Source of the DNA: Oscillospiraceae bacterium | GTDB lineage: Bacteria > Bacillota > Clostridia > Oscillospirales > Ruminococcaceae | Assembly (NCBI GenBank): GCA_017483465.1 | Contig: JAFUWN010000038.1 | Coordinates: 1-40,532, forward strand | Reading direction: 5' to 3' | Length of the DNA: 40,532 nt | In this document: positions 1-11,504 of the stretch, one piece after another | Numbering within the stretch: the first letter of the stretch is position 1 | Layout of the letters: the number at the start of each line of letters is the position of its first letter | Made by a program: the position numbers and the translations under genes | Notes under the pieces: model-generated | Seen by the model: the letters and a program-made list of their open reading frames with translations, nothing else | Databases searched by the model: none | What the model was told of the DNA's origin: nothing

Positions 1-3000
1 AGCACCGGTATTGGTCTTAGTCAGATCTGCATTTTCTTCATCAGCCTCGATGAGAGTCAGTTTCAGAGTAGCTCCTTCGAGCTCTTCTTCGCCGCCGACT
101 GCCTTCTTGCTGATTTCGATTTCAGAAGGAGCATCTTTCATAGTAACTGTAGTACCATCGACAGCATCAGTAGTTGTGCTTGTGATTGTACCATCTTCAT
201 TGACTGTGAAAGTAATGACTTCTGCGATAGTGTAACCATCGGGAGCAGTTTCTTCCTTGAGTTCATAATCGCCTGCCGGAAGACCGCTCAGGATTGTTGC
301 AGTTTCGCCGGATGTGAATGTGATTGTATTTTCGTCTTTTGTCAGTTCAAAAGCTTCGCCGTCACGGGTTGCAGTCACTTCGGATAAATTCTGATTGCTC
401 TTGGCAGTAACAGTCAGTTTTGCTCCGGGGAGTTCTTCTGTGCCGTTGATTGCTTTTTTGCTGATTACGACTAATTTTTCATTTGATTCTGCATCACTTA
501 CGACAATTTTATTAGCTTCTGTGATCTGATAAGAACCGCCTGTTGCATCATCTGGAACGGTTTTATCGAGATCATTTTCAATAATCTTGCCGTCTTTGAT
601 CTCAAATGTGATTTCAGAATTCATGACCTGATAAACTTTACCATTGGCTGCAAATTTATTTCCGGTTTCTTTCAGTTTATAGACTCCATCAGGGAGTGTA
701 CTGAGTATTGTTTCATTTTCGCCGGAAGTAAACGTTACGGATTTACCATCTTCGGATTTAGTCAGTTTATCAGTAACATCAGTTTCGCCCTGCTTTGCGG
801 TGATATTGGATAAATCCTGTCCGCTTTCAGCAGAGAGTGTCAGTACTGCATTGGGAAGTTCTTCTTCGCCGTTGACAGCCTTTTTGCTGATTGTGAGATC
901 AACAGTATCATCTGTCATGATAATCTGATTGTTTTTATAATTTTCTGTGACATCTATATTATTGATTGTCACTTCTGTGATTTCACTCTTTTGGACTCTG
1001 AAAACAATATCTGTTGCTACGAGATAACCAGAGGGAGCGGCTTCTTCATGCAGTGTATAAAAACCATCATCAGGAAGACCTGTAATAGAAGAAGCGGAAG
1101 TACCGGATTTCCATTTGAATACGTTGCCTTCAGCACTGATCAGTTCAGCACCTGTACCAGCTGTAAACTGTTCTGCAATGATGTCGAAACTTTTGCCGTC
1201 ACCGTCACGGCATGTGAGTGTCAGAATTGCACCAGAAACTTCATTTCCGTTTACATCCTGTTTGGATAATACAACAGCACTTTCTGCTTCATCCATAACC
1301 GTCAGTGTCATGCCATCTTTGGAAATTGTGACATCACCTGTTGTAACAGAAGAAACGTCTACAATTTTTCCGTTTTCGATATCGAAAGTAAATTCTGTTA
1401 CTGTCCTATAACCTGAAGGAGCAGCAGTTTCTTCCAGAACATAAGTTCCGTCCGGCAGCCCTGTCAGTTCGATATTATTGCTTGTTACAGAATAACTGCC
1501 GTCTTCATCGAGCATGTCTTCTGTGATGACAGTCTGTCCGTTCTTGACACCAACAAGAGAAAAGCCGTCATCAGATGTCAGTTTGAATGTAGCAGTACCA
1601 GTCTTGATGATTTTTGCATTCATATCAGTTTTATTGATAGAAATCGGAATATCATCGCTTAATTCCTGATATACAAAATGCCATTCTTTCGGAACTGCCA
1701 TAAAGCCGTCTGTAATAATCCAGCCTGTGCAGGAGTTGCCTTCATTATCTGTAATAGAATTTTCATCCGGAAGGAGGAAAATACCTGCCGTAGTTGTCAG
1801 ATGCAGTCTTTCTACAGAAGCCAGATTCCAGACCATACTGCGAGTCATATACTGATCAAGCTTATTATTCTGTTCACTGTTGAAAGAAGTATTGGGTTCA
1901 GAGTTCATATCCAGATAAGTTCCGTCACTCTGAAGCACATGCATATTAAACTGATCAATTGTCAGTTCCTTGGTATCATCGAAATTGAACACAATCAGCT
2001 GATGTTCTTTTTTATAAACATTCAGCCAGCCTGCATTTTGCAGTACGTCATTCTGAGCCAGCTTATCACCGTCTACATAGATGGTTGCATAATCCGGATA
2101 ATCTGTAGTGTCCAGAATCCAATTTCTACCATCTGGTGTATATGGCATTACATTTTCCTGGTGTGTCAGCAATTCAGCAGAAATGGCTTCCATATGAGAA
2201 ATGATGGGTTCAATTCTGTTGTTTGTGATAGAATCCGGATCTTCCGGGAATACTTCGACAAAGTTTCTTAGATCACGGATACGGTCAGCAGAATCGGTAT
2301 ACAGCTTGATATTTTCTGTGCCGTGGTCTTCGCCGATAAATACATGACCTCTGTTATCTCCCGGCATGTCCTGAATTTCTTCGAGAGAATAGATTTCTGT
2401 ATTTTCGTCAATATAAGTTTTAATTCCCATATAGGCTCTGGAATCTTCGGCATCTGCTGCACCAAAGTCTACATATTTGGAGAGTACTACTGCACCGGAA
2501 GAATTACCGGTCAGGTTCGAATTAATCGGGCCGCCGTTTGTCTGGAAGTAATTGGCTGCCAGATTGGACTGGATATCACCGCCGGGCATATAGAACCTGT
2601 CTGCAACGATACCGTAATACAGGCCGCTGCCCAGAATTTCTTTGAATGTGTAATCATTTTCAGCTTTGATTGTAGTAAGAGAAACAGAATCTTCAATTTC
2701 TGTGACATGTGTATCTGTATTTCTTATTACAACAGTAGAATGATATGTGACTGTGCCGCCGGCAATGATATCGCCGTCTTTCAGTATGACACATTCCGAG
2801 TTATCTCTGAGGTTTCCGAAATTGCGTTCTTTATTGGCTTTTATCAGAGAAACTTCTACTGTTTCGCTGCCGCTGAGACGTTCATGTTCTTTTTTATTGC
2901 CGTTGCCGTCCAGCCAGTTCTGACTTTCTGCATCCTGAATAATAATTTCCGTGTCTTTCGATTCCAGCTGCTGATAATAATAAGTAGGATCAGAAGTCTG

Positions 3001-4218
3001 GTGTGTAACTTTTACGAACAGATAAAGATAATCATCCGGTGTTACTTCCGCATCATCATAATCAATTGTAATTTTATATTCTACAATATCTTTTTTCAGA
3101 TTCAGCGTTGTAATATTTCCATTGGGAGTATTGCTGATAAAGCTATATAACGGAATATTATCCGCATAACCAGCTTTCGGATTGCCTTCTGTATCAAGAA
3201 TATCTGCATAGGTTGCAGGGGTTTCATCGGAACGGTATACCCTGACATCAACTTTATAATTTTTATAATCATATGGGATTTTTTCGTCTGTCTGAGAGCC
3301 ATCCTCGCCGAATGCATAGAATGTATCGAATCCGACAGTTCCCTGATAATATCCATTAACCCACTGGTAATTCACCCATGTATTTCCGGCATTTATCTGT
3401 GTGGGATCGAAAGTCTGGATTGACCAGCCTTTTACCTCTTTCGTAGCCGGATCTCTCATAGTAGCCAGCATGTAGTAATTGGTTGTCAGGTTATTCTGTA
3501 CATAAGAGCGGGTTTCGCCGTCATAATCATAAACATTGAAAATTGCTGTATGACCGCTGACAGCATTCATCTGAATGGTTGTTCCGTTCAGAGTACCCTG
3601 ACTGACAGGCAAGCCCTCGATTTCGCTGACTGCTGTACAGTTTTCTCTGTTGATGGCATTTTCAGCAGAAAGTTCTGTACTGGGGTCATTATTTTTGAGC
3701 AGATAGCCCTCTACACTTGCGGTATCCGGAATCCATTGAACTGTTGTTAATTGCCCATAGTTATTCCAATTCCAATTTTCTGTTTGCATAACAGTAAAAT
3801 TACCGGATTCCCATTCTGTTCCGTTGGCATTGATTTCAAGCAACTGATAGAATTCCTGAGCATATTGTTCACCATCTATCCGTTCATAATATGCCGGATC
3901 CTGTGTTGTCGCTTTTACCAGCAGATAGTATGTGTTATCTGGAACATCTACTGTAGTTTGACTTCCTGTTGCAGTTTCAAAGCTGATTTTTGCAGACAGC
4001 TCATTTGCTCCATAATAGGATGTCATCCAAGTCCAAACGGGATTTTGATAGCTAAGTGCTTCTCGTTCCAATGAGAAGATCGGAGCACCGGCACTGGGAT
4101 CGCCGTCCGCCGCTCGTATGGGAACAGAAGAGCCGACAGAACCTGCAATACTCATGACCGACATCATCACAGAAGTCAGACCGCTGAGAAACCGCTGACC
4201 AAACGTTTTCTTTGTCAT
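1..4218 (-). CDS. Large secreted adhesin with choice-of-anchor-A-like region and Cna-B/SpaA-like repeats (3' end outside window)
   Basis: Open through 1406 codons from the ATG at 4218 to the window edge, so the C-terminus, where a sortase motif would be, is missing. An in-frame ATG lies at 4224, but the GGGAG site sits almost on it and is about 7 bases from the 4218 ATG, which I prefer. Residues 1-38 form a signal peptide (basic start, hydrophobic core, Ala-rich end). Residues ~90-450 hold three related modules with a Y-L/M-L-V/A motif followed by DP, near 94, 246 and 394. Residues ~530-845 resemble a choice-of-anchor-A domain. Cna-B-like repeats begin near 857, 979, 1104 and 1247, and a fifth begins near 1363. 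Each has an N-terminal lysine strand (for example ISKKA) and an LxE box (LEETAAPSGY, LKEETAPDGY), as expected for intramolecular isopeptide bonds. Probable role: surface attachment or pilus-like stalk. The ligand is unknown. Confidence 0.88.
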   Translation of the reverse strand, partial: MTKKTFGQRFLSGLTSVMMSVMSIAGSVGSSVPIRAADGDPSAGAPIFSLEREALSYQNPVWTWMTSYYGANELSAKISFETATGSQTTVDVPDNTYYLLVKATTQDPAYYERIDGEQYAQEFYQLLEINANGTEWESGNFTVMQTENWNWNNYGQLTTVQWIPDTASVEGYLLKNNDPSTELSAENAINRENCTAVSEIEGLPVSQGTLNGTTIQMNAVSGHTAIFNVYDYDGETRSYVQNNLTTNYYMLATMRDPATKEVKGWSIQTFDPTQINAGNTWVNYQWVNGYYQGTVGFDTFYAFGEDGSQTDEKIPYDYKNYKVDVRVYRSDETPATYADILDTEGNPKAGYADNIPLYSFISNTPNGNITTLNLKKDIVEYKITIDYDDAEVTPDDYLYLFVKVTHQTSDPTYYYQQLESKDTEIIIQDAESQNWLDGNGNKKEHERLSGSETVEVSLIKANKERNFGNLRDNSECVILKDGDIIAGGTVTYHSTVVIRNTDTHVTEIEDSVSLTTIKAENDYTFKEILGSGLYYGIVADRFYMPGGDIQSNLAANYFQTNGGPINSNLTGNSSGAVVLSKYVDFGAADAEDSRAYMGIKTYIDENTEIYSLEEIQDMPGDNRGHVFIGEDHGTENIKLYTDSADRIRDLRNFVEVFPEDPDSITNNRIEPIISHMEAISAELLTHQENVMPYTPDGRNWILDTTDYPDYATIYVDGDKLAQNDVLQNAGWLNVYKKEHQLIVFNFDDTKELTIDQFNMHVLQSDGTYLDMNSEPNTSFNSEQNNKLDQYMTRSMVWNLASVERLHLTTTAGIFLLPDENSITDNEGNSCTGWIITDGFMAVPKEWHFVYQELSDDIPISINKTDMNAKIIKTGTATFKLTSDDGFSLVGVKNGQTVITEDMLDEDGSYSVTSNNIELTGLPDGTYVLEETAAPSGYRTVTEFTFDIENGKIVDVSSVTTGDVTISKDGMTLTVMDEAESAVVLSKQDVNGNEVSGAILTLTCRDGDGKSFDIIAEQFTAGTGAELISAEGNVFKWKSGTSASSITGLPDDGFYTLHEEAAPSGYLVATDIVFRVQKSEITEVTINNIDVTENYKNNQIIMTDDTVDLTISKKAVNGEEELPNAVLTLSAESGQDLSNITAKQGETDVTDKLTKSEDGKSVTFTSGENETILSTLPDGVYKLKETGNKFAANGKVYQVMNSEITFEIKDGKIIENDLDKTVPDDATGGSYQITEANKIVVSDAESNEKLVVISKKAINGTEELPGAKLTVTAKSNQNLSEVTATRDGEAFELTKDENTITFTSGETATILSGLPAGDYELKEETAPDGYTIAEVITFTVNEDGTITSTTTDAVDGTTVTMKDAPSEIEISKKAVGGEEELEGATLKLTLIEADEENADLTKTNTGA

Positions 4219-4290
4219 ATTCATTCTCCCTTTCTATATAAAATATTGTTTCATATGGTATTTTTATAAATCCACAGAAACTATATTGAT

Positions 4291-4445: not shown

Positions 4446-4468
4446 GGCTCTTTCTCTAAGAAAGAGCC
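4446..4468 (-). terminator. Terminator of the Ter biosynthetic operon, containing the HAD stop codon
   Basis: Perfect 10-bp stem GGCTCTTTCT / AGAAAGAGCC (4446-4455 with 4459-4468) with loop 4456-4458. On the minus strand it is followed by an AATTTTTATTT tract. The loop is the TAG stop codon of the HAD gene, so the stem encodes the last three residues. Confidence 0.85.
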
Positions 4469-5175
4469 GTATCTAACACAAGCTGTAAGACATCCGAAGC
4501 AAAATCCTGCTGATCTTCACGGAATAAAGCAATATCTGCAATTTTCAGCATAGGCAGATCCATTTCGCTGTCACCGGAAGCAATCAGCAGATCACATGGA
4601 TATAACTTCCGGAATCTCTGCAAAGCAGAACCCTTATTTTCATCGGACGGAAAGAAATAGAGTTTTCTGCCTGTGCGGAAAGCCTGTAACTGCGTAAGAT
4701 TCTGATAGTCTGAAAGACAGTCATCAGCGATTTCGGAAGTTTCACAGGCACAGGCAACAAACATACCATCTGCAATGCTGACATGCCGGAAACGGCTGTC
4801 TTGCTGGAAAATCTGTTCCAGATTCCGGAATTCCGGCTGATACGGCTGAACTCTGCATACAGAATCTGAAAGCCAGTCGGCTTCCGGCATATCCTGTTTC
4901 AGTAAAATATAGCCGTTGGCAGTCAGAGCGAATTCCGGATGATACTGCTCCGGAAAGAAAATCCGCTGATACTGAGCGACAGTACGGGTTGTAACGGGCA
5001 GAAAACAGATATTTTTCTGCTGAATCATCTGACGGAACAGGCTGACGGCTTTCTGAGACATAAAACTTTGTTCCCGTTCCTGATATAATTCGACACAGAG
5101 ATCAGTTTCTGTTTTTTTCTTATGTGAATGAATCAGAGTATTATCCAAATCTGAGGCAAATAAAATTTTTTTCAT
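4456..5175 (-). CDS. HAD-superfamily phosphatase of the Ter biosynthetic module
   Basis: 239 aa. Motif I is DLDNT (D9 and D11, near the N-terminus), motif II is the Thr in VTTRT, the conserved Lys lies in NKGSAL, and motif IV is GDSEMD (~residue 197). This matches the Cof/sucrose-phosphatase branch of HAD hydrolases, which dephosphorylate small phosphorylated metabolites. I chose the ATG at 5175, 16 bases after the StiP stop. A TTG at 5205 is in frame but would overlap StiP and adds a non-HAD leader. The ribosome site before 5175 is weak, so translation may be coupled to StiP. It is last in a run of four co-oriented genes. Phosphatases of this type recur beside the PRTases of Ter operons and are predicted to act in one nucleoside-like pathway. 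The substrate is unknown. Confidence 0.85.
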   Translation of the reverse strand: MKKILFASDLDNTLIHSHKKKTETDLCVELYQEREQSFMSQKAVSLFRQMIQQKNICFLPVTTRTVAQYQRIFFPEQYHPEFALTANGYILLKQDMPEADWLSDSVCRVQPYQPEFRNLEQIFQQDSRFRHVSIADGMFVACACETSEIADDCLSDYQNLTQLQAFRTGRKLYFFPSDENKGSALQRFRKLYPCDLLIASGDSEMDLPMLKIADIALFREDQQDFASDVLQLVLDTALS

Positions 5176-5191
5176 GATGACTAAAACTTTC

Positions 5192-6241
5192 TTAATTATC
5201 GGCAAGATTCTGAATCAGACCGCAGGCCTTATAGCATTGCAGAGGATAGACTTCTACAGGCACATGTTTTTCTTCGGCAAGCTGATAGATATGCCCCAGA
5301 TGGTCTGTATCATCAAGGCTGTGAACCAGAATTTTCCATGGAATCCGCCTGAGGAGCACTCTTGTCGCTTCACCGATACTGGGCTTGACAAAATTAATAT
5401 CAGAAATTCCGAAATGCCGGGCAATCTGTCTTGTTTCCTCAATGGCATCGATTTCGGGTCTGGATTCACTGACCGGAATCAGTGTAAGATCAAAATAATT
5501 TTCGATTTCTGATAAAAATTTTTCTGTCAGGTCGATATTTTCAAATTCCTGATAATACATCGCACCGTGGAAATCAAAAGCTTTAATAATATCTTTCCGG
5601 TAGAAAGTCCGGCTGATGAGTCCGGAAACGGTAGAATTCAGACAGGAACTTGCAATCAGGAAATCTTCATAAGTACCGGATTTTCCGGCGATATGAGCCG
5701 GATCGGAAAGAACGGCTAATAACGGATCAATTTCCGGCCATTCCTGCATAGCTTCGGTCAGAGTTCTCTGAATCGCTCCTTTTCCTGTCCAGCCGTCCAC
5801 GAACTGAATGCTTTCCGGACTATGAGATTTTAAAATATAGCGAATGGCATTTTGATCAATACCCTTGCCACGGATAATCGAGATCGTATAATGACTGATT
5901 TTGATTTTATGCCGTTTTTCAAGATAGCGTTTCAGGAGAATGCCAATCGGCGTTCCGGCTCTTGCGAGCGAGACAAGAACAATATTTTCGCCTTTTTCCT
6001 GAAAAATTTTCTCTGCCAGACTGCCGACTGCCTTTGCCGTCAGAGGTGCATAGCGTTCAAGAGCGTCATAGAAAGTTTTCAGATAGGCTTCTGAAGGAGC
6101 ATGTTCACAAGGGAGCATTTCAGAATAATGCACACCCTGCTGAATTAATTTTTCTCTCTCCTGATTTTCAAGAGGCTGTACCAGTCCGGTAATATCTTTG
6201 AGTAAAATTTCTACATCTTCCGATCGATAAGAAGTCCGCAT
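5192..6241 (-). CDS. StiP-family protein: PRTase-like domain with C-terminal PELOTA RNA-binding-like domain
   Basis: 349 aa. The N-terminal two thirds match the family annotated 'cysteine protease StiP', later regarded as phosphoribosyltransferase-like. Visible hallmarks are the LVSLARAGTPIG segment (~residues 88-99) and the IIRGKGID stretch (~residues 123-130). The last ~80 residues (KPSIGEATRVLLRR, then a KILVHSLDDTDHLG stretch) fit the PELOTA RNA-binding domain joined to these proteins in Ter operons. The ATG at 6241 is preceded by AAGGGGTG with 5-base spacing. The gene starts 4 bases after the PRTase-TRSP gene and is followed 16 bases later by the HAD gene, so the three are surely one transcript. 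The family is tied to stress/tellurite clusters by neighbourhood; the reaction is unproven. The family call is firm, the function inferred. Confidence 0.87.
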   Translation of the reverse strand: MRTSYRSEDVEILLKDITGLVQPLENQEREKLIQQGVHYSEMLPCEHAPSEAYLKTFYDALERYAPLTAKAVGSLAEKIFQEKGENIVLVSLARAGTPIGILLKRYLEKRHKIKISHYTISIIRGKGIDQNAIRYILKSHSPESIQFVDGWTGKGAIQRTLTEAMQEWPEIDPLLAVLSDPAHIAGKSGTYEDFLIASSCLNSTVSGLISRTFYRKDIIKAFDFHGAMYYQEFENIDLTEKFLSEIENYFDLTLIPVSESRPEIDAIEETRQIARHFGISDINFVKPSIGEATRVLLRRIPWKILVHSLDDTDHLGHIYQLAEEKHVPVEVYPLQCYKACGLIQNLADN

Positions 6242-6245
6242 TTTT

Positions 6246-7349
6246 TCACCCCTTGATTAAGATTCTATCGGCATTCGGGAACAGAACACAAAGCTGTTCC
6301 ATTGCTTTTTCAGTATCTGCCTTGCTGTCTGTGACGATCAGGACAGCTTCTGCTGACTGATCTGCCTTTATATTGTAGATATATGTTTTTCTGGAGCTGT
6401 CATAAAAACCGGAAAGCGTACAGCCCTGCTGAATGGGATAATTTTCATCCTGACAGATTCCGATCGGACTTCTTGTCGTCGCATGACAGCGGACGGAAAG
6501 TTCAAACTCTTCGAGCGTATTGCCTAAGAACAGAGCCGGATACATACATTCTTCCGTACCTAAGACGAGAATCTTTTTCTTTCCGGCGAGTATGGGACGG
6601 AGTTCTTTCAGGACGGAAGTCATAAAACTCAGATAGGCTTCACGATACTCTTTCAGCTGATGGGGGGTTCGGCATTCCGGAAGCGGATTTCTCGAAATCA
6701 CGCAATGATAGGGCATTTTCTCAGAAAACGGAATCCCCTCCGGTTCAGTAACATGAAAACGGCTGATCTGACTGGTATAATCCAGATTTTCCAGTTTACA
6801 GAGAGCTTCACAGAAAATATTTTCCTGTTCGAGTAATTTCAGATTTTCTTCTGAAACTCTGTTGATCACAGAAGCGGCAATAAATTTCGCATTCTGATAT
6901 GCAGGGCATTCCTGCCGGATTTGTGAAACCATATTCCGGATTGTCTTTCCGGTTGAGATTTCATCATCAATTAAAATAATTTCTTCTGTCTGCGGCAGAT
7001 CGCCGGAGAGATATAATCTCTGCTCGACAGCATGGCTGTGTTCTTCTTTGAAATTCAGGCAGTCACCGGAGAGAATTTCTCTTGTTGTATGCAGAAAATA
7101 CACATCATCAGGAAAATTCAGAGCCGCTCTGAGGGCAATCGCTGTTGCTGTTTCTGCGAAGCCGATGATCAGTTTTGCTTCCGGATGATTCTGATATAAA
7201 ATTTTTCCGAGTTCCGCCATCATAGCAAGAGCCTTTTTCGGAGAAACGGCCAAATGCTTTGCCTGCAAGGGATTGACCAATAAATAGCTTCTCTTTGTAT
7301 TCTGATACCGCTTGGCCAGTCTCAGCAAATCTTTCTGATCATAATGCAA
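6246..7349 (-). CDS. Phosphoribosyltransferase with C-terminal TRSP domain (Ter biosynthetic module)
   Basis: 367 aa. The PRPP-binding signature is IILIDDEISTGKT (two acidic residues followed by a Thr-rich loop), with a preceding GFAETATAI loop, both typical of type I phosphoribosyltransferases. The C-terminal part carries ATTRSPIG, the motif for which the TRSP domain is named. The start is a TTG at 7349: AAAGGAGGA lies 8 bases upstream, and the next in-frame ATG lies well inside the domain. The start overlaps the end of the HpcH-like gene by 11 bases, indicating coupled translation. Expected role: transfer between PRPP and a base in a pathway shared with StiP, HAD and HpcH-like proteins. The substrate is unknown. 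Confidence 0.88.
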   Translation of the reverse strand: MHYDQKDLLRLAKRYQNTKRSYLLVNPLQAKHLAVSPKKALAMMAELGKILYQNHPEAKLIIGFAETATAIALRAALNFPDDVYFLHTTREILSGDCLNFKEEHSHAVEQRLYLSGDLPQTEEIILIDDEISTGKTIRNMVSQIRQECPAYQNAKFIAASVINRVSEENLKLLEQENIFCEALCKLENLDYTSQISRFHVTEPEGIPFSEKMPYHCVISRNPLPECRTPHQLKEYREAYLSFMTSVLKELRPILAGKKKILVLGTEECMYPALFLGNTLEEFELSVRCHATTRSPIGICQDENYPIQQGCTLSGFYDSSRKTYIYNIKADQSAEAVLIVTDSKADTEKAMEQLCVLFPNADRILIKG

Positions 7350-8325
7350 CAGAAATTCCTCCTTTCGGAATTACGCCGTATAAATCGCCTAATATCTTGA
7401 TTCTTCTTGCCCATTTTCCATGGCATTTGAGTTCATTCATGCGGGAGCCGCCGAAGCCTTTCTGCACGGCTTTCTGAGTTTCATTCCAGTTAAGAATCCG
7501 GCAGGCATCACGATAATCTTCCTCCGAGACCTTGAGACTTTCCCAGATATAGGGCAGCTGTGTCGGATGGATTGCCGTCTTGCCGATAAAGCCGTTGAGC
7601 CTGTCGAGGGATAATTCTTTCTGCATACCGCTGACCCAGGAAAGGTCTGTCTTTCCGAAATATTCCCAGACAGGGGCAGAAACGACAAACTCGCCGGAAA
7701 ATTTATTTAATATATCTGCCAGAATATCTCTGATAATGCCGATCTGATAGATATTTTCTTCTTCGGAACGCCGCAGGCCATAGAGATTGCAGAAATCATT
7801 CCCGCCGGTGCGGACGTTCAGAATCCACGGCCATACCTGCATTAATTTTTCATAGATTTCTTTCAGTTCCTGCTGACGGGTGGACATATCGGCAATAGCA
7901 CGGCTCTCCAGAATCGGCATTGCATAGACAATATGGCCGGATGTCCTGTTGATTTCTGTCAGAACAGAAAGATAATTTTCCGCATTGGAAGAATCAAACT
8001 TCGGCAGAATAAAGCCGGTCAGAATTTCTCTGCTGTTTCCGAGCAGATTCCAGATATGCCGCATATGTTCTGCCGAGCGGATCCGGATGAACAGCAAGGG
8101 AAAGTCTTCCCTTCTGTGTGCAGACAATTCTGAAAAAATACTGCATACGGCCTGTTCTGCGGCCGGCAGAGCAGAATCCAGAATAGAATCTTCGAGACAG
8201 AATGCCGCACTTGTCAGATAGGGTACAGCTTTATGAATAATTTTTTCGGCAATGCCCTCCTGTACGGCAGGCATATACAGAAGACCGCCGACATGATAGG
8301 CAAGTTCAGTAATTTCCTGATTCAT
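7339..8325 (-). CDS. HpcH/HpaI aldolase / citrate-lyase-beta-like protein of the Ter module
   Basis: 328 aa. It resembles the CitE/HpcH TIM-barrel lyase family: an N-terminal LYMPAVQEG segment, FCLEDSI (the acidic strand of CitE-like proteins), IRIRSAEH, and GKTAIHPTQLPYI near residue 248, the usual CitE C-terminal signature. The ATG at 8325 has GGAG 9 bases upstream. The first of four tightly packed genes that include two PRTase-like proteins and a phosphatase, it probably does carbon-carbon bond making or breaking in that pathway, not citrate metabolism. A possible extended -10 promoter lies in the 111-base gap upstream. Confidence 0.86.
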   Translation of the reverse strand: MNQEITELAYHVGGLLYMPAVQEGIAEKIIHKAVPYLTSAAFCLEDSILDSALPAAEQAVCSIFSELSAHRREDFPLLFIRIRSAEHMRHIWNLLGNSREILTGFILPKFDSSNAENYLSVLTEINRTSGHIVYAMPILESRAIADMSTRQQELKEIYEKLMQVWPWILNVRTGGNDFCNLYGLRRSEEENIYQIGIIRDILADILNKFSGEFVVSAPVWEYFGKTDLSWVSGMQKELSLDRLNGFIGKTAIHPTQLPYIWESLKVSEEDYRDACRILNWNETQKAVQKGFGGSRMNELKCHGKWARRIKILGDLYGVIPKGGISVAL

Positions 8326-8371: not shown

Positions 8372-8400
8372 ATTATATCAGAAAGATATCAAATATAAAA
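8372..8400 (-). promoter_or_regulatory. Possible internal promoter for the Ter biosynthetic module
   Basis: On the minus strand, TGATATAAT (TATAAT at 8377-8372, extended -10) lies about 47 bases upstream of the HpcH-like start. The matching -35 (TTTTAT at 8400-8395, spacer 17) is poor. It could drive the four biosynthetic genes independently of the TerD genes. Confidence 0.4.
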
Positions 8401-8436: not shown

Positions 8437-9615
8437 TTATTCTACTTCGATGCCAAATCTCTGGCAAAGCTGTTCCAGTCCGTCACGGTAGCCTGCCGAA
8501 ACTGCTCTGAATTTCCAGGTATTCTGATAGCGATAAATTTCCGCCGCAACGAGTGTTCTTTCTTTGCTGAGATTTTCCAGAGGCATATAAGCAATCTGTT
8601 CTGTTCCGTGGAAAATCTGGAGCACGGGCTTTTCTATCTGAGAGAAATCAAAATCCGGATGATCACCGTAAGCCGAAAAGCAGACCGCAATTTTCTGAAT
8701 ATCCTGGTAGACTCTGTTCAGGCGGAATGCAGCCTCCGGATATTCGGCACCGTCCACGATGGCTGCACCGCCGTTTTTGGATATCAGATTCCCGAAAAAG
8801 ACCATATCTTCGTCACAGCCGGTCAGTTCATTGTCATGCAGAAGAAACACATAGGCATCCATTTCCATCGGCAGATATAATTTCTGCCAGACAAGGCGGA
8901 CTCTGATTTCTTCTTCCAGATAAGATGTCAGATCAAATCTTGCACCGGCTCTGAGCATTTCGCCTGTTTTCAGGTTTTTATCCAGCTTCTGCGGCACAGG
9001 CCGTTCCGGAACAGGGAATTCGGCTTCCTGGAGGGCTTCGAGCTGTTCTTCCTGTTCAGCGAGGGAAGAGACATCAAAAATTTCCAGTCTGCGGGAAGAA
9101 GCCTGAGCGACGGCATTTTCTTTCTGTGCATCTGCGAATTGGCAGATCTGCGGAAATCTGACACGCAGTTCCGGCAGAATTTCAAATGCCGCCTGTATTT
9201 CCTGCGGTGTACCCCGGAGGATAATCACAAGATCATGCCGGTTCAGCATAGATTCCAGAATCTGAAAATTCTCCTGATTCAGCTCATCCGGCCGGGAAAG
9301 CAGCAGGATATTTCCGGCGGCTTTTTCTGCCAGTTCCTCGTCAAGAGCAGCGGCATCGGCTTTGACAAGGCCGCCTTCGGAGAGATATTCCAGTGCATGA
9401 TAAATCTGCCCCATAAGTTCGGCTGCCTGTGTGCGGCCTGTTCCCTCTTCACCGGAAAAAATCATATGCAGAGGCACGGGCGTGTAAATAATTTCCTGTT
9501 TTTCCTCCTGTTTCCAGACCTGTAACAGCCGGATAAAGGCATGTATACTGATTTTCATTTCCTGTAGTCCCTGAAACTGGTCAAGTTTATATTCCAGTTC
9601 TTCTATTGTCTGCAT
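8437..9615 (-). CDS. Degenerate CbxX-type AAA+ domain fused to a TerD-like domain
   Basis: 392 aa. Residues ~45-165 follow the CbxX/CfxQ AAA+ pattern (HMIFSGEEGTGRT, then AELMGQIYHALEYLSEG), but the Walker A lysine is Arg (GTGRT). The Walker B acids are replaced: the expected LFIDEAYSL position reads LLLSRPDEL. The sensor-like strand VIILRGTP and the RVRFP segment remain. A linker rich in Glu and Ala (~165-215) joins a TerD-like domain (~220-392) ending in the family's ELY/EIYRYQNTWKFRAV pattern. That domain lacks the DNxTGxGxGDDE stretch of its neighbours; VDGAEYPEAAF stands there. The ATG at 9615 has GGAGGTG about 8 bases upstream. It sits between the TerD genes and the biosynthetic genes, after an internal terminator. 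By inference it is a non-hydrolysing scaffold or adaptor linking them. Domain calls are fairly sure; loss of activity is a prediction. Confidence 0.8.
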   Translation of the reverse strand: MQTIEELEYKLDQFQGLQEMKISIHAFIRLLQVWKQEEKQEIIYTPVPLHMIFSGEEGTGRTQAAELMGQIYHALEYLSEGGLVKADAAALDEELAEKAAGNILLLSRPDELNQENFQILESMLNRHDLVIILRGTPQEIQAAFEILPELRVRFPQICQFADAQKENAVAQASSRRLEIFDVSSLAEQEEQLEALQEAEFPVPERPVPQKLDKNLKTGEMLRAGARFDLTSYLEEEIRVRLVWQKLYLPMEMDAYVFLLHDNELTGCDEDMVFFGNLISKNGGAAIVDGAEYPEAAFRLNRVYQDIQKIAVCFSAYGDHPDFDFSQIEKPVLQIFHGTEQIAYMPLENLSKERTLVAAEIYRYQNTWKFRAVSAGYRDGLEQLCQRFGIEVE

Positions 9616-9648: not shown

Positions 9649-9682
9649 AAAAAATAAGAGGAATCTTCGGGATTCCTCTTAT
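9649..9682 (-). terminator. Intra-cluster terminator/attenuator between TerD and the AAA+/TerD gene
   Basis: 12-bp perfect stem (ATAAGAGGAATC at 9654-9665 with 9671-9682), a 5-base loop, then five T and an AT-rich stretch on the minus strand. I see no good promoter between it and the next gene, so the downstream genes probably depend on read-through or on the weak promoter near 8372. Confidence 0.85.
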
Positions 9683-9706
9683 CTGTACTGTTTGTTACTT
9701 ACTGTA

Positions 9707-10318
9707 TCAGCTAAAGCGGGCTGCCAAAGATCTAATATCATTGTCTTCCGTTGCCTGACCGACAGCACTGAATTTCCACTGTCCGTTATGACGGTAGATT
9801 TCACCGAAAACCATTGCTGTCATATTATTATAATTTTCAGAAAGATTATACCGGCAAAGTTCCTGATTGTTATCTGCATCCACAATGCGGATAAACGCAT
9901 TCTGAATCATGCCGAAATGCTGATTTCTCTGTCTTGCCTGATAGATATTGACAACGAAAATAATTTTATCGTAATTCTGCGGCACCTGCTGAAGATCTAC
10001 TACAATCTGTTCGTCATCGCCGGCACCGGCACCGGTGAGGTTATCGCCCATATGCTGAATTGCACCGGAAGAATGACGAAGATTGCCGAAATAAACAATA
10101 TCGGCAGTGGCAGTCACTTTGCCGTTGATGCAGACAAACGCAGAGGCATCACAGTCGATATTCTGTGTTTTTGCACCGCCGAACAGGCCGCCCAGAAAAC
10201 CGCCGGACTGCTGAGGCTTTGCCTCATCCCAGCCCAGGCCGACAACCACTCTGCGGAGTGTGCCGCCGTCAGATTTCTGAAGATTTACTTTCTGGCCTTT
10301 TACCAAATTTACACCCAT
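9707..10318 (-). CDS. TerD-family stress protein with Gly-rich insertion
   Basis: 203 aa. Starts with the family opener KGQKVNLQK, then VGLGWDEA, DCDASAF, and HMGDNLTGAGAGDDEQIVVDL, the acidic loop that binds Ca2+ in TerD structures. It ends with GEIYRHNGQWKFSAVGQA. Between the GLGWD strand and the DCD strand it has a Gly/Phe-rich insertion (PQQSGGFLGGLFGGAK) absent from the two TerD copies upstream, and the usual DLDAAAF is DCDASAF. It starts 4 bases after the TerA-like stop and is the last gene before the internal terminator. TerD proteins are cytoplasmic or membrane-associated and confer resistance to tellurite and other stresses; the mechanism is unresolved. Confidence 0.93.
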   Translation of the reverse strand: MGVNLVKGQKVNLQKSDGGTLRRVVVGLGWDEAKPQQSGGFLGGLFGGAKTQNIDCDASAFVCINGKVTATADIVYFGNLRHSSGAIQHMGDNLTGAGAGDDEQIVVDLQQVPQNYDKIIFVVNIYQARQRNQHFGMIQNAFIRIVDADNNQELCRYNLSENYNNMTAMVFGEIYRHNGQWKFSAVGQATEDNDIRSLAARFS

Positions 10319-10322
10319 AATT

Positions 10323-10925
10323 TTAATCCTTTCTGCCGGGAGTCCAGGTCATACCCCATTTAAAAGCCTTGTCCATATTACTGTGGCCATTATAGAACTG
10401 TACCAACTTTTCAACCGAGAACGTTTCGTTATTGCTGTTTTCCAGCATGGCAATGGCACACATGATCTGTGAAGAACCATATTCATCCATGCGGACAATC
10501 AAATCCTGACTGCCGGGGCATTTCACAGTGACAACACCATCGGCATTTCTCCAGTTTGCCACACCTTCATAAATAAAAGTATAGATCAGGATTCGCTTGA
10601 ATTCTGCAATATGTGCTCCGTTGATGCGAAGATTCTCGCCGTCGGAAGCCGCACCGCTCCGGTCATCGCCGTCAAGGGCGATGAACGGAAACTGTCTCAG
10701 ACTGCCGAATGCATTTCCCAGAGCCTGGACACAGCCTTTGCGGCCGTCTTTGAATTCATACAGACAGCCGAGATCCAGATCAATAGAAGCCTGCGGCAGC
10801 GGAATGCCGAGTATTTTTCTGGCCGGCGGCTGGCTCCAGTTGAGATTAATCAAAATCTCTCCCAGCGGTTTGTCTGTACTTTTGGACAGATTGACTTTCT
10901 GGCCTTTTCTTAATTCGACTGCCAT
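10323..10925 (-). CDS. TerA-like TerD-superfamily protein
   Basis: 200 aa. Opens with ELRKGQKVNLSK like TerD but then diverges: ILINLNWSQPP, LDLGCLYEFKDG, ALDGDDRSG with SDGENLRING, FIYEGVANW, and a C-terminal block with MDEYG and CAIAML. This GDDRSGxxxDGEN variant and the FIYEG segment match TerA, not TerD. Length and layout are normal. It starts 3 bases after the preceding TerD stop and ends 4 bases before the next TerD start, so the three are translationally linked. Likely role: partner of the TerD proteins in a Ca2+-responsive membrane-linked complex (inferred from the family). Confidence 0.85.
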   Translation of the reverse strand: MAVELRKGQKVNLSKSTDKPLGEILINLNWSQPPARKILGIPLPQASIDLDLGCLYEFKDGRKGCVQALGNAFGSLRQFPFIALDGDDRSGAASDGENLRINGAHIAEFKRILIYTFIYEGVANWRNADGVVTVKCPGSQDLIVRMDEYGSSQIMCAIAMLENSNNETFSVEKLVQFYNGHSNMDKAFKWGMTWTPGRKD

Positions 10926-10928
10926 AGA

Positions 10929-11504
10929 TTATGCATCCAGACCGAAATTGCGGCAAAGTGCAGCAAGTCCGCCGGAGAAGCCGGAACCGATGGCATTGAA
11001 CTTCCATTCGCCGTTATGCCGATAGAGTTCGGCAACAACAACAGCGGTTTCAATCGAGAAGTCTTCTCCGAGATCGAAATGAATCAGTTCTTCGCCGTTT
11101 TCCTGGTTCAGAATGCGGATATAGGCATTGTTGACCTGACCGAAATTCTGATTTCTCTCATCCGCTTCAAAAATAGTAACTGTGAAGTCGATCTTATCAA
11201 TATTAGCCGGAACAGCATTCAGATCAATATTGATCACTTCGTCATCGCCCTCGCCCTCGCCGGTCTTGTTATCGCCCATATGGGTAACAGAGCCGGAAGC
11301 ATGTTCTTTATTATTATAGAACACGAAATCAGCTTCGGAAGCAGCTCTGCCGTCTGCACCGAGCAGGAAGGCAGCCGCATCCAGATCGAATTCCGAGCCG
11401 CCGTCATACTTGTTGACATCCCAGCCGAGGCCGACCATAATTTTTGTTAAACCGGGGTTAGTTTTTGTCAGATCAACTTTCTGACCTTTAGACAGATTTA
11501 CCAT
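10929..11504 (-). CDS. TerD-family Ca2+-binding stress protein (copy 2)
   Basis: 191 aa. Complete TerD pattern: [55 protein letters not shown], the acidic loop [17 protein letters not shown], then [17 protein letters not shown] and a [10 protein letters not shown] tail. All acidic residues expected for Ca2+ binding are present. The ATG at 11504 has AAAGGAGG 9 bases upstream. It is very similar along its length to the neighbour at 11552-12130 (191 versus 192 aa), a tandem duplication. Expected to act with the Ca2+ ATPase gene that heads the operon. Confidence 0.95.

What the first reader, a model, noticed from the sequence alone, without database searches (positions are those of the whole stretch)
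8437..9615. AAA+/TerD fusion with both parts degenerate: a likely non-catalytic hub of the Ter system
Seen: the CbxX-type AAA+ domain has Arg for the Walker A Lys (GTGRT) and SRPDE where LFIDEA should be, and the fused TerD-like domain lacks the GDDE-type Ca2+ loop kept by its three neighbours. Known: TerD proteins bind Ca2+, and CbxX AAA+ proteins hydrolyse ATP. Inferred: the protein has kept both folds but lost both activities, so it may bridge the Ca2+-binding TerD set to the biosynthetic enzymes encoded just after it. I do not recall this exact architecture being described.
Basis: partly seen in the sequence, partly recalled or inferred. Interest (0 to 1): 0.75.

Follow-up and report, generated by a model that had tools for sequence, protein, structure and literature searches.

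The report
Dead AAA+ domain fused to TerD
A gut-bacterium stress operon ends with a protein in which a worn-out motor (AAA+) domain is joined to a TerD domain that has lost its calcium loop; it looks like a structural adaptor of the TerD set, and it comes and goes independently of the enzymes encoded after it.

Summary
Window 8437-9615 (minus strand, 392 aa) encodes a SpoVK/CbbX-type AAA+ core fused to a C-terminal TerD domain, and both parts are degenerate. The loss is larger than reported: the AAA+ part also lacks the pore-loop segment, the sensor-1 Tyr and the lid, and the catalytic Glu is absent in 14 of 14 full-length homologues.

Two inferences need changing. The Walker-A Arg is a late change (one suffices on the tree): 7 of 15 homologues have Arg, 8 keep Lys, and the P-loop stays well conserved, so nucleotide binding without hydrolysis is possible in part of the family. 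The missing Ca2+ loop is shared by the whole TerD branch to which this domain belongs.

The proposed bridge to the enzymes is contradicted. In the genus, 8 of 15 fusion-bearing genomes lack C-C lyase and StiP, and 8 of 15 lyase-bearing genomes lack the fusion.

A terminator-like hairpin precedes the fusion gene in 14 of 14 loci. I propose a scarce adaptor: the Ca2+-less TerD docks on Ca2+-binding TerDs, and a swappable N-terminal part (dead AAA+ here, all-beta in relatives) recruits a partner. Function is inferred; architecture, degeneracy and dissociation are shown.

The parts
8437..9615 (-). AAA-TerD fusion gene, 392 aa (the finding)
9121..9615 (-). degenerate SpoVK/CbbX-type AAA+ core, residues 1-165; pore-loop segment and lid absent
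   Evidence: (CbbX profile 14-204 of 284), alignment, Foldseek to 3syk
9430..9453 (-). Walker A position, GEEGTGRT (Arg for Lys), residues 55-62
9280..9309 (-). Walker B position, ILLLSRPDEL (Ser-Arg for Asp-Glu), residues 103-112
8971..9120 (-). linker, residues 166-215, with predicted helix 182-197 (low confidence); residues 178-215 well conserved in the close orthologues only
8455..8955 (-). TerD domain without the Ca2+ loop, residues 221-387
9652..9684 (-). intrinsic-terminator-like hairpin with U-run between the TerD genes and the fusion gene; a like hairpin stands in 14 of 14 loci
8372..8399 (-). promoter-like site (TTTATA-16-TATAAT) ahead of the C-C lyase gene
9707..10318 (-). TerD protein with Ca2+ loop, gene just upstream of the fusion
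10323..10925 (-). TerD-family protein of another type (TerA-like is a recalled label)
10929..11504 (-). TerD protein with Ca2+ loop
11552..12130 (-). TerD protein with Ca2+ loop
12192..14852 (-). calcium-type P-type ATPase, upstream of the TerD genes
7339..8325 (-). C-C_Bond_Lyase (start of the enzyme cassette, a separable neighbour)
6246..7349 (-). PRTase_2-TRSP protein (enzyme cassette)
5192..6241 (-). StiP-PELOTA protein (enzyme cassette)
4456..5175 (-). HAD-family hydrolase (enzyme cassette; the ORF begins at 5205, true start not settled)

Best explanation
The gene encodes a non-hydrolysing AAA+ pseudo-ATPase joined to a Ca2+-free TerD domain. It is the last gene after the Ca2+-ATPase and TerD genes and is probably made in small amounts by read-through of a conserved hairpin. 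The TerD half is the constant part and most likely docks on the Ca2+-binding TerD proteins encoded before it. The N-terminal half is a swappable recognition part: a dead AAA+ core in this genus, an all-beta domain in other genera. It holds or recruits a partner, possibly in a nucleotide-dependent way in the lineages that keep the Walker-A Lys. Shown: architecture, fold match, degeneracy, selection, hairpin, independence from the enzymes; slot equivalence in four loci. Inferred: docking on TerD, scarcity of the product, partner recruitment.
For: Over 14 full-length homologues: catalytic Glu in 0, Walker-B Asp in 2, sensor-1 Tyr in 0, Arg finger in 5; pore-loop segment and lid absent. The AAA half is still under purifying selection (pN/pS 0.38) and the TerD half more so (0.16). 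In the same seven genomes the intact SpoVK-like paralogue core is 91% identical and the fusion AAA 68%. P-loop window 5th best conserved of 159 in the AAA half. The fusion TerDs lie in a branch of 30 rows, all without the Ca2+ loop, while 15 of 15 canonical TerDs have it. The slot just before the C-C lyase is held by all-beta-TerD proteins in L046, L047, L048, L050 (all-beta from the model of their relative L012). In 15 of 15 fusion-bearing genomes the fusion follows TerD genes. Hairpin: 9 pairs unbroken in 14 of 14, 3 with changes on both sides.
Against: No interaction data; docking on TerDs rests on gene position and shared fold. The hairpin may be bypassed by an undetected promoter. G139 has the same kind of operon and enzymes without the fusion, so it is not essential. 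The linker is not conserved in the second clade. The model has low pTM (0.54), so domain packing is unknown. All-beta-TerD genes also occur without a TerD neighbour in the stretch held (L051), so the slot is not universal.
Confidence: 0.45

Rival explanations
1. One reading: a dead hub that physically bridges the TerD set to the downstream biosynthetic enzymes.
For: The fusion lies directly before the enzyme cassette in 7 of 15 fusion-bearing genomes.
Against: 8 of 15 fusion-bearing genomes lack C-C lyase and StiP (one, G307, is cut by a contig end); in L161-L164 the fusion is followed directly by the surface-protein gene that otherwise follows the cassette, and in L165-L167 by unrelated genes; G139 has the enzymes but no fusion; a promoter-like site precedes the cassette.
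Confidence: 0.1
2. A bind-not-hydrolyse nucleotide sensor: the AAA half binds ATP or a nucleotide-like signal and changes shape without turnover, handing the signal to the TerD proteins.
For: P-loop G55, T59 and G60 invariant in 14 of 14, Lys in 8 of 15; P-loop window 5th of 159 in conservation. TerD domains have been proposed to sense nucleotide derivatives (passages of PMC7159879 and PMC7824862).
Against: Lys replaced by Arg in the window and six others; in the window's clade the P-loop window ranks only 23 of 159; Walker-B Asp lost in 12 of 14 and sensor-1 Tyr in 14 of 14; adenine contacts untested.
Confidence: 0.25
3. A modulator of the intact SpoVK-like AAA+ paralogue, joining or capping its ring as an inactive subunit.
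For: The paralogue (72% or more identical to the query) is found in 29 of 38 genus genomes and in 10 of 15 with the fusion.
Against: In 5 of 15 fusion-bearing genomes (G302, G323-G326) the only match is the fusion itself (these genomes are 57-88% complete). Lid and Arg finger are missing or variable; the paralogue is encoded elsewhere and is common without the fusion.
Confidence: 0.05
4. The AAA half is a relic without a job, kept only as a spacer in front of TerD.
For: It evolves much faster than the paralogue (68% against 91% identity in the same genomes).
Against: pN/pS 0.38, open frame in 15 genes (one cut by a contig end), P-loop glycines kept. A lone TerD without the loop stands after the TerD genes in L174, so a spacer is not needed there.
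Confidence: 0.1

Closest known systems
SpoVK / CbbX / EccA clade of AAA+ ATPases
   Same: Sequence and fold of the AAA+ core; dedicated chaperones with variable extra domains (passages of PMC10659427).
   Different: Catalytic Glu, sensor-1 GY Tyr, pore-loop segment and lid absent; TerD fused at the C-terminus.
TerD family (KpTerD, Streptomyces TerD 3ibz)
   Same: Fold, and an operon with a Ca2+ ATPase and TerD paralogues.
   Different: The loop that carries residues 78-89 of KpTerD (parts of both Ca2+ sites; passages of PMC8779313) is deleted; fused to another domain.
TerD-AAA protein of G136 (L025, 507 aa)
   Same: Same two domain families, in a Ter operon with the same enzymes; its TerD also lacks the Ca2+ loop and its Arg finger is lost.
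   Different: Reverse domain order, lid still recognisable, Walker A GKT kept and Walker B DD; common origin with the finding is not settled.
Non-catalytic AAA+ subunits such as clamp-loader delta and delta-prime
   Same: AAA+ fold used as a structural part (recalled, not tested here).
   Different: No evidence that this protein sits in an AAA+ ring; no TerD domain there.

Membership tests
SpoVK/CbbX/EccA AAA+ ATPases | Sequence and fold relationship of the AAA+ core | tested here: met
SpoVK/CbbX/EccA AAA+ ATPases | Walker A Lys | tested here: not met
   Arg in the window; Lys in 8 of 15 homologues
SpoVK/CbbX/EccA AAA+ ATPases | Walker B Asp-Glu | tested here: not met
   Glu 0 of 14, Asp 2 of 14
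SpoVK/CbbX/EccA AAA+ ATPases | GY signature in sensor-1 (feature from PMC10659427) | tested here: not met
   GT 13, GS 1 of 14
SpoVK/CbbX/EccA AAA+ ATPases | Asn upstream of the first Arg finger (PMC10659427) | tested here: not met
   Asn 1 of 14, not in the window
SpoVK/CbbX/EccA AAA+ ATPases | First Arg finger (taken as the Arg of SRF, by conservation) | tested here: inconclusive
   Arg in the window (R153) but in only 5 of 14 homologues
SpoVK/CbbX/EccA AAA+ ATPases | Lid with sensor-2 Arg | tested here: not met
   CbbX profile match ends at 204 of 284; no AAA_lid_6 match, unlike the paralogues
SpoVK/CbbX/EccA AAA+ ATPases | ATPase activity, hexamer | not testable with these tools
   needs protein
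TerD family | Pfam TerD above the curated cut-off | tested here: met
   93 bits against 25.3
TerD family | KpTerD-type Ca2+ site residues | tested here: not met
   E251/D253 stand at 40/42; the 78-89 stretch is deleted
TerD family | Ca2+ binding in solution | not testable with these tools
   needs protein
Ter operon with C-C lyase/PRTase/StiP enzymes | Presence of the enzymes in all fusion-bearing genomes | tested here: not met
   7 of 15 fusion-bearing genomes have C-C lyase and StiP, 8 do not

The most novel reading that the evidence does not exclude
There is a class of modular Ter-system hubs: one lineage of TerD domain lost Ca2+ binding, became a docking part, and picked up interchangeable N-terminal parts (pseudo-AAA+, all-beta, others). 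In this genus the amount is held low by a conserved terminator-like hairpin, so that few hubs organise many Ca2+-binding TerDs; the pseudo-AAA+ version is a nucleotide-gated, non-hydrolysing switch.
Probability: 0.25. Interest if true: 0.7.

Novelty: new variant of a known kind. Interest (0 to 1): 0.5.

Why it matters
What TerD proteins do with Ca2+ is an old open question. A natural TerD that cannot bind Ca2+ in the known way, tied to a dead motor domain and placed behind a hairpin in 14 of 14 loci, gives a defined handle: a predicted scarce docking partner for the Ca2+-binding TerDs. It also offers a graded series of AAA+ domains losing catalysis in one genus (Glu absent throughout, Walker-A Lys lost late in one subclade), useful for studying how an enzyme becomes a scaffold. 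The dissociation from the enzymes corrects a tempting guilt-by-association reading of Ter operons.

Tried and rejected
Rejected: neutral relic (pN/pS, open frames); sequencing or frame error (14 full-length homologues, the window among them); role tied to the enzyme cassette (see rivals). The idea that the Walker-A Arg is the key feature was dropped after seven further Lys-bearing homologues turned up. Common origin with the reversed L025 fusion: the tree puts its AAA next to the fusions (95/85), but of three alternative placements tested two were not rejected (AU p 0.15, 0.39) and one only just (0.04), so it stays open. My working note that all fusion-bearing genomes hold the SpoVK-like paralogue was wrong: 10 of 15 do; I lowered that rival from 0.1 to 0.05 for it.

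Led nowhere: alignment A2 put AAA fragments onto TerD and was not used for counts or folding (its TerD-only rows show the loop gap). The label beta-helix in my scripts for the N-terminal part of the L009-L024-type proteins was by eye; the model of L012 is all-beta, its Foldseek list shows TerD hits first and PapD-like HYDIN domains among weak ones, and none of the 50 listed is described as a beta-helix, so I write all-beta. Fusion outside the genus: none in AAA-TerD order among 297 and 396 family genomes and 391 class genomes; these are samples of larger groups, they overlap, at most 6 or 4 candidates a genome were scored, and the E-value limits were strict. Anantharaman et al. 2012, which surveys Ter operons, is not held, so its domain lists could not be checked.

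Dropped before counting: duplicate domains and matches above 1e-8; overlapping ORFs; L160 (cut by a contig end) in the 14-row counts; one paralogue core is short (161 of 184 residues).

Full report
What is there. The gene lies on the minus strand at 8437-9615. Its C-terminal half is a TerD domain (Pfam 93 bits, cut-off 25.3). Its N-terminal half is the core of a SpoVK/CbbX-type AAA+ domain: NCBIfam SpoVK E 2e-18, CbbX crystal structures in a profile search, and CbbX and TerD structures in a Foldseek search of the AlphaFold model. Upstream in the same direction lie a calcium-type P-type ATPase, three TerD proteins with the Ca2+ loop and one TerD-family protein of another type. Downstream lie C-C_Bond_Lyase, PRTase_2-TRSP, StiP-PELOTA and a HAD hydrolase. 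The window is contig C5 of a 2.9 Mb genome; the six close relatives are Ruminococcus and Oscillospiraceae MAGs.

How degenerate. In alignment with genuine SpoVK-like domains, Walker A is GEEGTGRT for GNPGTGKT and Walker B ILLLSRPDEL for VLFIDEAYSL, ungapped. The GYVGQTA segment, which I take to be pore loop 1 from its position (recalled), is deleted, and the match ends before the lid. Over 14 full-length homologues, the window included: Walker-A Lys 8, Arg 6; Walker-B Asp 2; catalytic Glu 0 (His 11, Arg 2, Asp 1); sensor-1 Tyr 0; Asn before the finger 1; finger Arg 5, the window among them. A fifteenth, cut by a contig end (L160), has Arg at Walker A. The clade features used as a yardstick come from passages of PMC10659427. 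In the TerD half, E251 and D253 stand where KpTerD has residues 40 and 42, but the stretch with residues 78, 79, 82, 84, 88 and 89 is deleted. Site residues are from passages of PMC8779313; the correspondence is read by eye from the TerD rows and.

When it was lost. A tree of AAA cores puts the 15 fusions in one clade (100/100). The seven Arg proteins form a subclade (90/89, not starred), with the Lys-bearing L042 branching just before it, so one Lys-to-Arg change suffices. Arg has been kept through codon changes (CGC, CGG, AGA, AGG). A TerD tree puts 30 rows on one side of a branch (95/71): 14 AAA-TerD, 14 of the all-beta type (one of them shortened), one with a long unidentified N-terminal part and one cut by a contig end. 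None of these, nor L025 next to them, has the GDNxTGxGxGDDE loop; 15 of 15 canonical TerDs do, and three long TerDs on the canonical side do not. Several branches in that tree are long and the program warned of it. So the Ca2+ loop was probably lost before the AAA half was joined.

Selection. Across seven close orthologues pN/pS is 0.38 for the AAA core, 0.23 for residues 178-215 and 0.16 for TerD. In the same seven genomes the intact SpoVK-like paralogue core is 91% identical on average and the fusion AAA 68%; the fusion TerD is 85% identical in six of them. The P-loop window ranks 5 of 159 windows of the AAA half over the 14 proteins, 23 of 159 in the window's own clade; in genuine SpoVK-like domains it is nearly invariant (0.99 against 0.74 mean pair identity). 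The domain is constrained, but not as an enzyme.

Not tied to the enzymes. Of 38 genomes of the genus, 15 carry the fusion, 15 carry C-C lyase and 15 carry StiP. Seven have the fusion, C-C lyase and StiP. Eight have the fusion and neither enzyme; one of these (G307) is cut at a contig end, so its cassette could be missed, and the other seven are 57-92% complete. Eight have C-C lyase without the fusion, but five of these (G305, G311, G312, G313, G320) carry another type of lyase with no TerD gene in the stretches held, and G305 has no TerD at all; G139 is the clean case. Synteny agrees. In window, L038 and L040 the order is fusion, cassette, large surface-protein gene. In L161-L164 it is fusion, then a gene of the same family directly. 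In L165-L167 unrelated genes follow. In L117 (G139) it is TerD, cassette, surface-protein gene, without the fusion. In 6 of 7 clade-1 loci a TTTATA-16-TATAAT site stands between fusion and C-C lyase, and L042 has TATCAT (read by eye; in the window also found by scan). Such scans are weak evidence: 31 promoter-like hits against 17 expected in shuffles.

The slot. In L046, L047, L048 and L050 the position between the TerDs and the C-C lyase is held by a protein with an N-terminal part akin to that of L012 and a Ca2+-less TerD; the L012 model is all-beta. In L043/L116 it is a shorter form, with the ATPase gene between it and the lyase. In L174 a lone TerD without the loop stands after the TerD genes. 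In L062 (G136) a reversed TerD-AAA protein stands in a similar operon, next to the ATPase. Against the slot: in L051 an all-beta-TerD gene has no TerD neighbour in the 19 kb held; in L049 and L052-L056 there is none either, but those genes lie close to a contig end.

The hairpin. Between the last TerD gene and the fusion gene a hairpin followed by a T-rich run stands in 14 of 14 loci. The consensus has nine pairs, none broken, three with changes on both sides. Of six folded alone, five have z-scores of -4.9 to -6.7; one (L165) is weak at -2.2. G139, without the fusion, has a similar hairpin after its last TerD (read by eye). L048 and L050 also have one ahead of their all-beta-TerD gene, but there a promoter-like site follows (read by eye). 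In the window only some 36 bases separate hairpin and start codon and the scan lists no promoter-like site there; it does list one inside the TerD gene before the hairpin (9845-9873). Terminator-like hits were 17 against 8.5 expected in shuffles. I infer read-through and a scarce product; this is not shown.

Mechanism proposed. The Ca2+-less TerD half docks on the Ca2+-binding TerDs; the N-terminal half is a recognition part. In lineages with Walker-A Lys it may respond to a nucleotide without hydrolysing it; the Ter system has been proposed to make and sense nucleotide-like signals (passages of PMC7159879 and PMC7824862). None of the binding steps is shown.

Novelty. In the held library no paper had TerD together with SpoVK, CbxX or CbbX. 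In the other searches no listed title or abstract start spoke of this architecture; apart from the four papers cited for passages I saw listings only, and the lists were cut. Anantharaman et al. 2012 could not be read. I file it as a new variant: known domain families in a combination that I found in one genus only and in no paper seen.

Noticed in passing
window 1-4224 (minus): Large surface protein with four SpaA prealbumin-like stretches, running off the window; genes of the same family follow the Ter locus in several relatives.
   Followed up: partly
L025:1390-2910 / L062:9330-10850: Reversed TerD-AAA fusion with intact Walker A, Walker B DD and lost Arg finger in a Ter operon of another genus.
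   Followed up: partly
L171:6487-7914, L172:8529-9974, L173:5074-6408, L181:5321-6565: Proteins of the same genus with an N-terminal TerD-like part and a C-terminal stretch that looks like a vWA domain (by eye); three of the four sit in Ter operons.
   Followed up: no
L004:1486-2364, L043:1444-2241, L044:2315-3232, L045:5539-6570: Long TerD proteins with a Gln/Pro-rich N-terminal part. The three put in the tree (not L045) lack the Ca2+ loop but lie on the canonical side: a separate loss.
   Followed up: no
homologues of window residue 108: His stands at the catalytic Glu position in 11 of 14 fusion proteins, in both clades; it may mark a new binding role.
   Followed up: no
G305, G311, G312, G313, G320 (L111-L115): A second type of C-C lyase (open frames of 386-413 aa) with no TerD gene in the stretches held, in the same genus.
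   Followed up: no
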